This document shows positions 34,013-38,468 of a stretch of 64,000 nt of DNA, in pieces. Each line of letters opens with the position of its first letter. Within the stretch, counting starts at the first letter, position 1. The position numbers and the translations under genes are program-made. The notes beneath the pieces are model-generated. The model was not told where the DNA came from, ran no database searches, and worked only from the letters and a program-made list of their open reading frames with translations. This DNA comes from Chromatiales bacterium (GTDB lineage: Bacteria; Pseudomonadota; Gammaproteobacteria; Chromatiales; Chromatiaceae). Location of the stretch: assembly GCA_028280505.1 (NCBI GenBank), contig JANQLO010000014.1, positions 62,001-126,000 of the forward strand, in the 5' to 3' direction.

Positions 34013-34935
34013 CAGACCGCCTCCAGGGTCTGCGCGAGAATACGCCAGACCAGTTCGTCGAAATCGATACCGACCGCCTTGGCCGCCATCGGCACCAGGC
34101 TATGTCCGGTCATGCCGGGTACGGTGTTCACCTCGATCAGCCAAGGACGCTGCTGCTCGTCGACCAGGATATCGACCCGTCCCCAACCGGTCGCACCCAA
34201 GACATCGAAGGCGGATTTCGCCAATGCCTGCAAGTTCGCCTCGGCAGCCTGATCCAGACCACAGGGGATCAGATAACGGGTATCGTCGGCAATGTACTTG
34301 GCATCGTAATCGTAAAATGGATGATCGGTCTCCAGCTTGATCAACGGCAGCGCCTGATCGCCGAGGATAGCGACGGTGTATTCAGCGCCCGTGATCCAGC
34401 GTTCGGCCATCACCGGGCTGTCATACTCGGCAGCCTTGGCCCAGGCGGTGCGTAATGCACCGGGATCGTCCGCGCGTGACAGACCAATGCTCGAACCCTC
34501 CAGCGCCGGCTTGACCATCAAAGGAAAACCCAACGCGCAGGCAGCGTCGAAATCCGATTCACCGGTGATCAAGGTAAAATCGGGTGTGGGCAATCCCGAC
34601 GAACGGAACAACAACTTGCTGCGATACTTGTCCATACTGATCGCCGAACCCATGACACCGCTGCCGGTGTAGGGCAGCCCCAAAACCCCGAGCACGCCCT
34701 GGATGACGCCGTCCTCGCCACCACGCCCGTGCAACACGTTGAACACACGATCGAAACGGCCGCCGGACAATACGTCGAGGACATCGCGGCCCACATCGAT
34801 ACCGTGCGCGTCCACGCCACGCCGGCACAACCCGTCGAGCACCGCCTTGCCGCTAACCAAAGAAACCTCGCGCTCGGCGGCCCAGCCGCCCATCAACACC
34901 GCCACACGCCCGAAGTCCTGCGCACTGATGCTCAT
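34012..34935 (-). CDS. ddl: D-alanine--D-alanine ligase
   Basis: ATP-grasp enzyme making D-Ala-D-Ala for the peptidoglycan stem peptide. The 307 residues contain the N-terminal GGWAAEREVSLVSG motif, the ATP-binding PLMVKPALEGSSIGLS segment and WLIEVNTVPGMTGHSLVP at the active site. The position between murB and ftsQ identifies the DdlB-type copy of the dcw cluster. Its start overlaps murB by 4 nt. Confidence 0.96.
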   Translation of the reverse strand: MSISAQDFGRVAVLMGGWAAEREVSLVSGKAVLDGLCRRGVDAHGIDVGRDVLDVLSGGRFDRVFNVLHGRGGEDGVIQGVLGVLGLPYTGSGVMGSAISMDKYRSKLLFRSSGLPTPDFTLITGESDFDAACALGFPLMVKPALEGSSIGLSRADDPGALRTAWAKAAEYDSPVMAERWITGAEYTVAILGDQALPLIKLETDHPFYDYDAKYIADDTRYLIPCGLDQAAEANLQALAKSAFDVLGATGWGRVDILVDEQQRPWLIEVNTVPGMTGHSLVPMAAKAVGIDFDELVWRILAQTLEAV

Positions 34936-35828
34936 AACGGTTCCCCCACGGCATGCACTTCGGTCTGTAGACGAATACCCTGTAGGCGCTCGACCTCAGC
35001 GCGCACATGTTTGATCAGTGCCTCGATATCGGCTGCGGTCGCGTCGCCGGTATTGATGATGAAGTTCGCATGCTTGGTCGATACCTCGGCACCACCGATG
35101 CGATAACCTTTGAGTCCGCAGGCCTCGATCAAGCGGGCGGCAAAATCACCCTCGGGATTACGGAAGGTCGAACCACAGCTCGGCTGGCCGGTCGGCTGGG
35201 TCTCGGCACGGCGATCCAGCAAGGCACGAATCGCTTGTTGCTCCGCCGCCGCATCGCCGGGAACGAGCCGTAGTCGACAATCGACGAACCACTCCTCGGC
35301 AGGCCCCTCGACCTCGCGATAAGCCACGCGATATTCAGACGGCGAACGCCGGTACATACGACCACTTCGATCGATGGTGCGGACCGCGCTGACGATGCGC
35401 CAGGTCTCACCGCCGAAAGCCCCGGCATTCATCGCCAAGGCACCGCCCATGGTGCCGGGGATACCGGCCAGGAAGGCCGCCCCGGTCAATCCCGCGCGCG
35501 CACACGCCCGTGCCACTTTGGCGCAGGCGACCCCCGCCTCGACCGCAACCTCATCGTCTTCGATCGCCAAATGACGCAAGCGCCCCTGCAGCAGGATCAC
35601 GGTACCCGCAAAGCCCTCGTCCCGGATCAACAGATTGCTGCCCAGTCCCAGCCACAACAACGGCTCATTCGCTGGCAGCGTCGACAGAAACAATGCCAGA
35701 TCCTCGCTATCGGCCGGCAAGTACATCTGACGCGCCGGCCCACCCACGCGCCAGGTGTTGTAGCGCTTGAGCGACTCGTCGAGACGCCACTCCCCGCGCA
35801 ATGCCGGTTGTTGCGGTGCCGCCATCAT
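34932..35828 (-). CDS. murB: UDP-N-acetylenolpyruvoylglucosamine reductase
   Basis: FAD enzyme reducing enolpyruvyl-UDP-GlcNAc to UDP-MurNAc. The 298 residues have YNTWRVGGPA and GIPGTMGGALAMNAGAFGGE in the FAD domain and STFRNPEGDFAARLIEACGLKG with AEVSTKHANFIIN in the substrate domain, the shorter type II MurB. Two successive ATGs (35828, 35825) are possible; the first overlaps the stop of a 49-codon small ORF (ATGA), and AAGGA lies 8 nt upstream. Unlike most dcw clusters it is not immediately adjacent to murC. Confidence 0.96.
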   Translation of the reverse strand: MMAAPQQPALRGEWRLDESLKRYNTWRVGGPARQMYLPADSEDLALFLSTLPANEPLLWLGLGSNLLIRDEGFAGTVILLQGRLRHLAIEDDEVAVEAGVACAKVARACARAGLTGAAFLAGIPGTMGGALAMNAGAFGGETWRIVSAVRTIDRSGRMYRRSPSEYRVAYREVEGPAEEWFVDCRLRLVPGDAAAEQQAIRALLDRRAETQPTGQPSCGSTFRNPEGDFAARLIEACGLKGYRIGGAEVSTKHANFIINTGDATAADIEALIKHVRAEVERLQGIRLQTEVHAVGEPL

Positions 35829-35974
35829 CGCCTGTCCTTACCCACCTTGCCCGGCACACATTTCGAACGACCACGACGCAGACCCGTCATGCGCGACCGT
35901 TGCAAAGGCAACCTGGCGGTCAGTGCCTCACCGCAGCCCATGTGTAAATGCAATGGATCGATCGGGCGTCTCAT
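35825..35974 (-). CDS. Small basic ORF (49 aa) coupled between murC and murB
   Basis: Not a recognised gene. The ORF begins [20 protein letters not shown] and ends GKVGKDRR. Its ATG overlaps the murC stop (ATGA) and its own stop overlaps the murB ATG (ATGA), the same coupling as at most junctions of this cluster. GGAGGA lies nine nucleotides before the start, among the best ribosome sites here. The product has 13 Arg/Lys against 3 Asp/Glu, two cysteines and no membrane segment. Codon use is less biased than neighbouring genes (AGA, TTA and two AGG codons), which argues for a young or regulatory ORF. Alternatives: a translational relay with no functional peptide, or a remnant of a longer MurB N-terminus. 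Translation is likely; a function is unknown. Confidence 0.6.
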
Positions 35975-37401
35975 GGGCACAGTTCCTCCGCCATTGCGGC
36001 CGCGACCTGGCCGATGTTGCCGGCGCCCATGGTGACCACGATGTCACCGTCGGCGACGATACCTGTCAGCACGGTGGGTAGATCCTCGATCTTTTCGAGG
36101 AACACCGGATCGACCTGCCCCCGGGCACGGATCGCACGACTCAGCGCACGCCCGTCGGCACCGACGATAGGCGCTTCGCCCGCGGCATAAACTTCCGACA
36201 ACACCAACACGTCGGCTTGCGACAACACGGTGACGAAATCCTCGAAGGCATCTTGGGTCCGGCTATAGCGATGCGGCTGGAAGGCCAACACCAAACGACG
36301 GTCCGGCCAGCCGGCCCGCACTGCGTCAAGGGTCGCCGCGACCTCACGCGGGTGATGCCCATAGTCGTCGACCAGCATCACGTCGCAACCTTCGACACAG
36401 CAACCGTTTTTGGCCTGGAAGCGTCGACCGATACCCTCGAACTTGCTCAATGCGGCCTGGATTCGTTCGATCGGCACGCTGAGTTCGTATGCGACAGCGA
36501 TCGCCGCCAAGGCATTCAAGACATTGTGCAGACCCGGCATGTTCAACGTGACCGAAAAGGGCGTCTCGTCGCCCATCGCAACCTCGAATCGGGTGGTCAT
36601 CCCTTGCTGTTCGATCGCCAGGGCACGGATATCGGCATCCTCATGCGTACCGTAGGTGACCACCTTACGGGTCACCTCAGGCAACAACTCACGGACATGA
36701 TCGTCGTCGATACACATCACCGCCTGACCGTAGAAAGGCAGGTGATGCAGAAACTCGAGAAAGGTCGCCCTGAGACGTTCGAAATCGTTGCCGTAAGTGA
36801 TCATATGGTCTTCGTCGACATTGGTGATCACGGCAAGCATCGGCTGCAGGTACAGAAAAGACGCATCGCTTTCATCGGCCTCGGCAACCAGGAACTCGCC
36901 CTCGCCCAGATGGGCATAGCTGCCACGCGAATTCAGTCGCCCGCCGATCACATAGGTCGGATCGAGATCCCCTTCGATCAATAGACTGGCAATGAGGCTG
37001 GTAGTGGTCGTTTTGCCATGGGTGCCGGCAACCGCGATGCCGTAACGGAAGCGCATGATCTCGGCCAACATCTCGGCCCGCGGCACCACCGGGATACGCT
37101 CACTGCGCGCGGCGGTCACTTCAGGGTTATCGTCCTTGACCGCGCTCGATATGACCACGGCGTCCGCACCATGCACATGCCCCTCGGCATGACCGATATG
37201 AATCTGCGCGCCCTGCTCGGCCAGACGTTCGGTGGCCGCATTCGGCTTAAGATCGGAACCCGAGATTTCATAACCGAGGTTCAGCATCACTTGTGCGATG
37301 CCGTTCATGCCGGCGCCACCGATACCGACGAAGTGCAGACGGCGCATTCGTCCCATGGTCTCGGCGGCATAGCGTGGGCTGGTCATCGGTCTTTCGGTCA
37401 T
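35971..37401 (-). CDS. murC: UDP-N-acetylmuramate--L-alanine ligase
   Basis: First amino-acid-adding Mur ligase. Start at ATG 37401 overlaps the murG stop (ATGA); an earlier in-frame ATG lies in murG. The 476 residues have the N-terminal UDP-binding [11 protein letters not shown], the P-loop GTHGKTTTT (around residue 120), the central ligase domain and the C-terminal domain with FQPHRYSRT. Its end overlaps the small ORF at 35825-35974 rather than murB. Confidence 0.97.
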
Positions 37402-38468
37402 GCCGCCAACTCCGCACAAGCATCGGCCACACGTTGTGTCGCATCGCGGCGTGCCAAGCCATAGGCCTTCATCGCCATCGCCTGCAGACGACGACGATCG
37501 CCAAACAAATATTGCAGCCGCCCCGCCAGGAACGCCGGATTCAGTGCGTCTTGTTGAATGACCTCGGCCGCACCGGCCTCGCTCAAGAAACGCGCATTGG
37601 CCGTCTGATGGTCATCGACCGCAAACGGGAAAGGCACCAATATCGCAGCAACGCCCGCGGCCATGAGTTCGGACACGGTCAACGCCCCGGAACGACAGAT
37701 CACCAAATCGGCCCAGTCATAGGCCTCGGCCATCTCGTCGACAAACTCGGTAACCTCGGCCTCGATACCTTGTGCGCGATAGGCGTTGGCGGTTACGTCG
37801 GCTTTGCCCCGCCCGGCCTGATGACGTACCTGCGGCCGTTGCCCGTCCGGGATCGATGCCAGGGCCAGCGGCACGCGTTCGTTCAAAGCCTGGGCGCCGA
37901 GCGAGCCGCCCACGATCAATAAATGCAATGGACGATCATCACCGATCTCGGCAGGTGCCGGCATAAGACCGATGGCCTGACGTAGCGGATTGCCGGTGGC
38001 TTGAGCGCCGACCGATGCGGGGAAGCTACCGGGAAAACCTTCGAGCACGCGCGCGGCGATACGTGCCAACCAACGATTGGTCAAACCCGGGATGGCATTT
38101 TGTTCGTGGATAACCAGAGGTGTGCGGCGTAAGCGGCTAACCAGGCCACCGGGGCCGGACGCGAAACCGCCCATGCCCAATACGACCTGCGGCCGCTGTC
38201 GCCCGAGTACCGACCAGGCCTGCGACAAGGCACGCAACATCTTGAACGGCGCCTTGAGCAAACTGGTCATGCCCTGTCCGCGCAATCTGAAGGATGCAAT
38301 GGTATCGAGTTCGAAACCCTCGGCCGGCACGACCCGCGATTCGAAGCTGTCGGGCGTGCCCAGCCAGCGTACCTGCCAACCGCGAGACTTGAGTTCGTGA
38401 GCGACCGCCAATGCCGGAAACACATGCCCCCCGGTGCCGCCGGCCATGATGGTTATACGCGCTGCCAC
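37398..38468 (-). CDS. murG: Lipid II synthase (GlcNAc transferase) MurG
   Basis: Peripheral membrane GT28 glycosyltransferase that adds GlcNAc to lipid I. The 356 residues start at a GTG ([20 protein letters not shown]), with AAGGAGGGG upstream, and carry the glycine-rich loops MAGGTGGH and [11 protein letters not shown]. It overlaps ftsW by 16 nt and murC by 4 nt. Confidence 0.96.

What the first reader, a model, noticed from the sequence alone, without database searches (positions are those of the whole stretch)
35825..35974. A 49-codon basic small ORF exactly bridges murC and murB with ATGA overlaps at both ends
In most dcw clusters murC and murB abut. Here a 142-nt gap is filled exactly by an ORF whose start overlaps the murC stop and whose stop overlaps the murB start, preceded by GGAGGA at nine nucleotides. 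The product has 13 Arg/Lys, 3 Asp/Glu and two Cys in 49 residues. It is probably translated: if only to carry ribosomes into murB it is a translational relay, but a basic micropeptide acting on peptidoglycan precursor synthesis is possible. Rare codons (AGA, AGG, TTA) could slow translation.
Basis: partly seen in the sequence, partly recalled or inferred. Interest (0 to 1): 0.8.

Follow-up and report, generated by a model that had tools for sequence, protein, structure and literature searches.

The report
Overlooked small gene before murB
Between two cell-wall genes of many purple-sulfur and symbiotic bacteria lies a tiny protein gene, about 50 amino acids long, with an almost unchanging Gly-Cys-Gly-Glu core; it is absent from the protein family libraries we searched and most likely works with the cell-wall enzyme MurB.

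Summary
A profile of the small protein matches 96 of 195 genomes sampled from the window's order; in all 96 the gene lies between murC and murB. It also occurs in 8 other gammaproteobacterial families. The 129 distinct proteins share an N-terminal core, roughly R-L-H-[MQ]-G-C-G-E-[SP]-L (Cys 129/129, Glu 124, Leu 128), and a variable, mostly basic tail. Within genera the core has pN/pS 0.03, the tail 0.48, MurB 0.15; synonymous sites in the core are free. So the peptide itself, not RNA or relay, is selected. It abuts murB (129/129 within 22 nt, 90 overlapping). In two lineages it is fused in frame to MurB; three variants have extra DNA between it and murC but not murB. Presence changes often on the tree, read as many losses. 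Pfam, NCBIfam, PHROGs, PDB and Rfam give no credible match; seven paper searches listed nothing on it. Best reading: a small MurB partner or regulator using a Cys-bearing glycine loop. That mechanism is inferred, not shown.

The parts
35825..35974 (-). small gene between murC and murB, 49 codons plus stop
35921..35947 (-). codons 10-18, LHMGCGEAL: the conserved core
   Evidence: alignments; residue counts; pN/pS 0.03; best-modelled block (residues 11-20, mean pLDDT 82)
35828..35920 (-). codons 19-49: variable basic tail, likely disordered
   Evidence: pN/pS 0.48; mean pLDDT 55-60 in blocks 21-49
35984..35989 (-). GGAGGA Shine-Dalgarno site of the small gene, inside the murC 3' end
   Evidence: sequence; hybrid energy -9.5 kcal/mol
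35971..35974 (-). ATGA overlap of murC stop and small-gene start
   Evidence: same offset in 98 of 129 distinct relatives
35825..35828 (-). ATGA overlap of small-gene stop and murB start
   Evidence: same offset in 90 of 129
35831..35839 (-). AAGGACAGG, probable murB Shine-Dalgarno site lying inside the last codons of the small gene (may be part of why the tail ends in Lys/Arg; inference)
   Evidence: sequence; hybrid energy -6.4 kcal/mol
34932..35828 (-). murB, 298 aa, nearer to S. aureus-type (type II) MurB than to E. coli MurB
   Evidence: chain 1hsk E 1e-55; 1mbb E 2e-20; which species these chains are and the type naming are recalled
35971..37419 (-). murC (longest ORF; true start not determined)
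   Evidence: tblastn

Best explanation
It is a small protein-coding gene of the division and cell-wall cluster. Ribosomes finishing murC restart on it and then restart on murB, so it is made in step with MurB. The peptide has a short Gly-Cys-Gly-Glu loop and an extended basic tail. The loop most likely binds MurB, or the MurB reaction neighbourhood, and tunes or localises the enzyme; the tail carries the murB ribosome-binding site and may serve as tether or spacer. Shown: the gene is widespread, selected at the protein level in its core, and tied to murB in position and twice by fusion. Inferred: that it is translated as drawn, that it contacts MurB, that the Cys is used, and the direction of the effect.
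For: Core conservation in 129 distinct proteins. pN/pS core 0.03, tail 0.48, MurB 0.15, with core pS 0.37 not reduced. Within 22 nt of a murB-frame start in 129 of 129, 90 overlapping, while three variants have 145-644 nt between murC and the gene. In all 96 genomes of the order sample with a profile match, the gene is read between murC and murB (95 separate, 1 fused). Two lineages carry it fused in frame to MurB: L190/G521, whose congeners L194, L280, L286 and L291 have separate genes, and L155=L196/G227 of another family. In L190 the core joins MurB with no start codon between them, so the tail is dispensable in cis. AlphaFold gives confidence only to the core.
Against: Each fusion is known from one draft genome and could be recent and neutral. 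No residue of MurB (16 columns tested) or MurC (8 columns) changes significantly with presence of the gene over independent pairs: the best are MurB position 109 (same way 4.3, other way 0.5, median p 0.125; the window itself is an exception there) and 260 (4.1 against 1.1, median p 0.375); the MurB GLCG cysteine is clade-driven. Presence changes often (28 changes on the tree, at least 13 forced by well-supported branches), so it is not essential everywhere. No complex could be modelled. No expression data were seen.
Confidence: 0.45

Rival explanations
1. Only a translational relay: any open 30-60 codon stretch would do, carrying ribosomes from murC to murB.
For: Overlaps at both ends in most copies. 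L007, in the same genus, kept a 30-codon relay ORF with overlaps and no core. The murB ribosome-binding site sits in the tail.
Against: Core amino acids are fixed while their synonymous sites vary. A relay needs no Gly-Cys-Gly-Glu. Many relatives without the gene couple murC to murB directly (gap -4 in 21 of 96 rows).
Confidence: 0.06
2. An independent small protein (thiol, metal or redox function, or a partner other than MurB) that uses the operon only for expression.
For: Invariant Cys in a glycine loop. No significantly co-changing residue found in MurB or MurC. Many named carriers belong to sulfur-oxidising groups (names; the lifestyle is recalled).
Against: No convincing copy away from murC-murB: all 96 order hits lie there, 13 of 14 class hits do, the last, L157 (E 8e-4, one internal stop), looks like chance, and the phylum sample gave only the window's own genome. 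Weaker hits (up to E 1) were not followed one by one. Two fusions to MurB. Several relatives with names of sulfur oxidisers lack it (Halochromatium L078, Chromatium L134, Halothiobacillus L109).
Confidence: 0.27
3. A regulatory nascent peptide, like an antibiotic-type leader: the core stalls the ribosome near codon 18 in response to a metabolite and so sets murB translation.
For: Conserved short N-terminal core in a leader-like ORF just before murB, variable remainder.
Against: No excess RNA structure over shuffles in the ORF or at the murB start (mean z +0.26 and +0.41 against -0.02 in a murC control, 41 of 129 sequences). Total ORF length varies 41-83 aa. The fused MurB forms keep the core as part of the protein.
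Confidence: 0.12
4. The core is a copy or mimic of the MurC N-terminal UDP-binding loop ([14 protein letters not shown]) and acts on MurC or binds nucleotide sugars.
For: Visual likeness of MRRLH plus a glycine loop; the MurC N-terminus is the best-scoring MurC region in 117 of the 145 with any match, of 197 MurC examined (these sequences are related, so not independent).
Against: Scores are negative (best -0.9, median -2.6) and -0.9 is reached by 3.1% of 1000 shuffled sequences; only 9 of 129 peptides hold MRRLH.
Confidence: 0.05

Closest known systems
Overlapping (ATGA) gene pairs and translational coupling in the dcw cluster (general knowledge)
   Same: Start and stop overlaps, Shine-Dalgarno site in the upstream gene
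   Different: Here an extra, selected protein is inserted between murC and murB
Leader peptides with N-terminal stalling motifs such as ErmCL (recalled)
   Same: Short ORF before the regulated gene, conserved short motif near the N-terminus
   Different: No RNA structure signal, variable length, fused to MurB in two lineages
Accessory protein regulators of early peptidoglycan enzymes, e.g. CwlM and ReoM acting on MurA (recalled)
   Same: Would be a dedicated modulator of a soluble precursor enzyme
   Different: Different enzyme (MurB), sequence relation not tested, encoded inside the cluster itself
Class I methyltransferase motif I 'LHLGCG' (recalled) and MurC 'HFVGIGG' loop
   Same: Similar letters, glycine-rich loop after a short strand
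   Different: No Rossmann domain follows; the PDB profile search gave only trypsins at E 0.2; MurC likeness not significant against shuffles

Membership tests
Any curated family in Pfam, NCBIfam, PHROGs | Match at the library's threshold | tested here: not met
   best E 0.025 (PHROG of unknown function, 2 of 51 members) and 0.29 (NCBIfam, 1 of 19); nothing in Pfam (window protein, and 19 members)
Rfam RNA element | Covariance model match | tested here: not met
   no match up to E 1 in window 35300-36500
Small-gene family before murB (this report) | [LF]-x-[MQL]-G-C-G-E-x-L core near the N-terminus | tested here: met
   window residues 10-18
Small-gene family before murB (this report) | Position between murC and murB, abutting murB | tested here: met
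Pure translational relay | No amino-acid constraint beyond openness | tested here: not met
   core pN/pS 0.03
Nascent-chain leader peptide | Stable or alternative RNA structure around the downstream start | tested here: not met
   no excess stability in 41 sequences; alternative structures were not modelled
Nascent-chain leader peptide | Ribosome stalling at the motif | not testable with these tools
   needs toeprinting or ribosome profiling
MurB partner or subunit | Physical contact with MurB | not testable with these tools
   only single chains can be modelled; the natural fusion L190 lies outside the stated allowed sources and was not sent
MurB partner or subunit | Gene fusion with murB in some lineages | tested here: met
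   L190 and L155=L196, one genome each
MurB partner or subunit | Residues of MurB that change together with presence of the gene | tested here: inconclusive
   16 MurB columns, lowest median p 0.125
Class I SAM methyltransferase | Rossmann domain after motif I | tested here: not met
   49 aa only

The most novel reading that the evidence does not exclude
It is the first dedicated protein partner of MurB: a mostly disordered micro-subunit whose invariant Gly-Cys-Gly-Glu loop docks on MurB and uses its thiol to adjust the first committed steps of wall synthesis to redox or reactive-sulfur state.
Probability: 0.13. Interest if true: 0.85.

Novelty: new variant of a known kind. Interest (0 to 1): 0.64.

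Why it matters
The dcw cluster is among the most studied gene clusters in bacteria. A widespread, strongly selected gene inside it with no family entry in Pfam, NCBIfam or PHROGs is a surprise. If it controls MurB, it would be a new point of control on an antibiotic-relevant pathway, and its many natural absences and two natural fusions make it directly testable.

Tried and rejected
Relay-only reading: rejected by codon analysis. RNA element: no Rfam match, no excess RNA structure (an earlier, larger run, timed out without output), free synonymous sites in the core. MurB or MurC residues that change with the gene: 16 MurB and 8 MurC columns, none significant (whose output was cut, repeated compactly; lowest median p 0.125 at MurB 109). 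MurB GLCG cysteine (59 of 134 rows with the gene against 3 of 96 without): clade-driven, pairs 1.1 against 1.1. MurC N-terminal mimicry: not significant against shuffles. Known fold: AlphaFold mean pLDDT 63.5, pTM 0.24, only residues 11-20 confident as a block, so no fold search was run. Papers: search listings with abstract starts only; no paper was opened and none listed appeared to be about such a gene.

Rows dropped or biased: ORFs were picked by 'GCG' and by a core profile (score over 6), so invariance of G-C-G is partly by construction. L232/G070 reads SVGCGEPF by eye but is counted as lacking. Five loci could not be classified (L117, L157, L197, L262, L281). The family count of 114 of 159 genomes is biased upward: it contains all 96 profile-positive genomes, many fetched because of the hit, and 63 others from several samples (18 with, 45 without); low-scoring MurB places that one search did not list were mostly not fetched. 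In the order sample 13 of 195 genomes had no MurB match at the cut-off. The second hit of G556 (contig end) was not read. Rows of the tree hold some genomes twice. The pN/pS pairs within genera are not independent.

Full report
The feature. On the minus strand of the window the order is murC, a 49-codon ORF, murB. The gap is 142 nt.

Conservation. I searched murB in 56 related genomes, got 30 loci, and read the murC-murB junctions. In the window's genus 8 of 9 genomes have an ORF in the same frame with the same kind of overlaps and the M-G-C-G-E motif (one starts with GTG). The ninth, L007, has an 85-nt gap with a 30-codon ORF that keeps both overlaps but not the motif. Many other genera of the family carry the motif; others have murC and murB abutting. 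An alignment of 19 proteins and then of 51 shows an N-terminal core and a variable tail. Profile searches at E <= 1e-3 found it in 96 of 195 genomes of an order sample, and reading the junctions puts the gene between murC and murB in all 96 (95 separate, 1 fused). In a class sample 16 of 369 genomes matched: two in the window's family and 14 in other families, of which 13 lie between murC and murB; the last, L157, does not and looks like chance. In a phylum sample 1 of 398 matched at E <= 1e-4, the window's own genome. The profile misses some: 18 further genomes of the family carry it on reading. Over everything fetched and classed with a core profile, 114 of 159 readable genomes of the family carry it (31 of 48 genera, 7 of them mixed), a figure biased upward because many junctions were fetched for a hit. 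One more (L232) reads SVGCGEPF by eye. Of 79 classified named loci 23 carry it. They include Sedimenticola, Candidatus Thiodiazotropha, a Solemya gill symbiont, Thiohalobacter, Thiohalocapsa, Thiodictyon and Lamprocystis records; many are MAGs, with names as in the record titles.

Protein-level selection. In 129 distinct proteins (41-83 aa, median 56) Cys is kept in 129, the Gly before it in 128, Glu in 124, the Leu two after Glu in 128, the Leu three before the first Gly in 118, Met or Gln just before that Gly in 113, His in 94 (selection by motif makes the Gly-Cys-Gly part of this circular). Lys+Arg exceed Asp+Glu in 128 of 129. All four glycine codons and both Cys codons are used. Within genera pN/pS is 0.03 for the core (14 non-synonymous, 131 synonymous differences summed over non-independent pairs), 0.25 for the N-terminus, 0.48 for the tail and 0.15 for 100 codons of MurB, and core pS (0.37) is no lower than that of MurB (0.31). 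This speaks against both a pure relay and an RNA element as the reason for conservation. RNA folding is not more stable than shuffles (41 of 129 sequences), and Rfam has no match.

Link to murB. The start overlaps the murC stop by the ATGA-type arrangement in 98 of 129, and ribosome-binding-like pairing of -5.7 kcal/mol or stronger precedes 50 of 51 checked (no shuffled control). The stop lies within 22 nt of a murB-frame start in 129 of 129, 90 of them overlapping by ATGA. In three variants (L099, L202, L212) 145-644 nt lie between murC and the small gene, yet it still abuts murB. In two lineages the small gene is fused in frame to MurB. L190 (G521) reads ...SQLAMGCGESLRGEWRYEEPLSRHTSWRVGG..., while congeners L194, L280, L286 and L291 have separate genes; comparison with L194 suggests a deletion of about 160 nt at a CTGCG microhomology that removed the tail and the murB start. 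There is no start codon between core and MurB; the Met of the core itself could in principle serve. L155=L196 (G227, another family) reads MMALAGKRLCMGCGESLGGG...CGEPLSRHTTWRVGG, with GTG codons in the linker that could also start MurB. Each fusion rests on one draft genome.

Evolution. On a FastTree of part of MurC (231 rows: 135 with, 96 without) presence needs 28 changes, at least 13 on well-supported branches (shuffled mean 73.6). I read this as an old gene lost repeatedly, though the method cannot tell gain from loss. Many junctions that lack it have murC and murB overlapping or nearly so (gap -4 in 21 of 96).

Shape. AlphaFold on the window protein with 23 relatives gives mean pLDDT 63.5 and pTM 0.24; residues 11-20 average 82, with bridge residues at 11 and 17 around Met-Gly-Cys-Gly-Glu, and the other blocks are 55-64. 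So: a short Cys-bearing glycine loop in an otherwise extended chain.

Mechanism. Shown: an overlapping gene with a protein core under very strong selection and a constant tie to murB. Inferred: the core works on or with MurB, which here is closer to the S. aureus-type than to the E. coli-type enzyme (species of the chains recalled). Coupled translation would keep peptide and enzyme in step; the tail carries the likely murB ribosome-binding site, which would help to explain its Lys/Arg ending. I put 0.45 on this. The main rival is a small thiol or metal protein with another partner that merely uses the operon (0.27); nascent-chain control of murB is possible (0.12); a pure relay is unlikely (0.06).

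Results against my reading. None of 16 MurB and 8 MurC columns changes significantly with the gene; the MurB GLCG cysteine follows clades. The gene is often absent. No expression evidence was seen. No contact with MurB could be tested. A likeness to the MurC N-terminal loop was not significant.

Novelty. No family in Pfam, NCBIfam or PHROGs, and nothing credible in the PDB. Seven paper searches (listings only) showed no paper that appeared to describe it; the library lacks most subscription papers, so prior mention cannot be excluded. Whether genome annotations already call this ORF as a hypothetical protein was not checked.

Noticed in passing
L007 (=L064), murC-murB gap of 85 nt: Same-genus relative in which the core is gone but a 30-codon ORF with overlaps at both ends remains: a natural relay without peptide core.
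   Followed up: partly
L190:846-1784 (-): Small gene fused to MurB, apparently by a deletion at CTGCG microhomology relative to congeners; no MurB start left after the core.
   Followed up: partly
L155=L196:3449-4414 (+): Separate fusion of the small gene to MurB in another family, with a Gly/Ala-rich linker.
   Followed up: partly
L099 (=L276), L212, L202 murC-murB gaps: Extra DNA of 145-644 nt between murC and the small gene; in L099 its frames read as short repeated units (VRKYVST-like).
   Followed up: no
L072, L241 murC-murB gaps: Relatives (L072 is Halochromatium roseum) without the core but with a MurB-frame N-terminal extension made of repeated short units; origin unknown.
   Followed up: no
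MurB of L056, L022 and others (alignment column 141): A Gly-Leu-Cys-Gly cysteine in MurB is common in carriers (59 of 134 rows) and rare in non-carriers (3 of 96), but this follows clades.
   Followed up: yes
L291 (G523): Copy with Asp in place of the first Gly of the core (MDCGESL) and a short tail: perhaps an early stage of decay.
   Followed up: no
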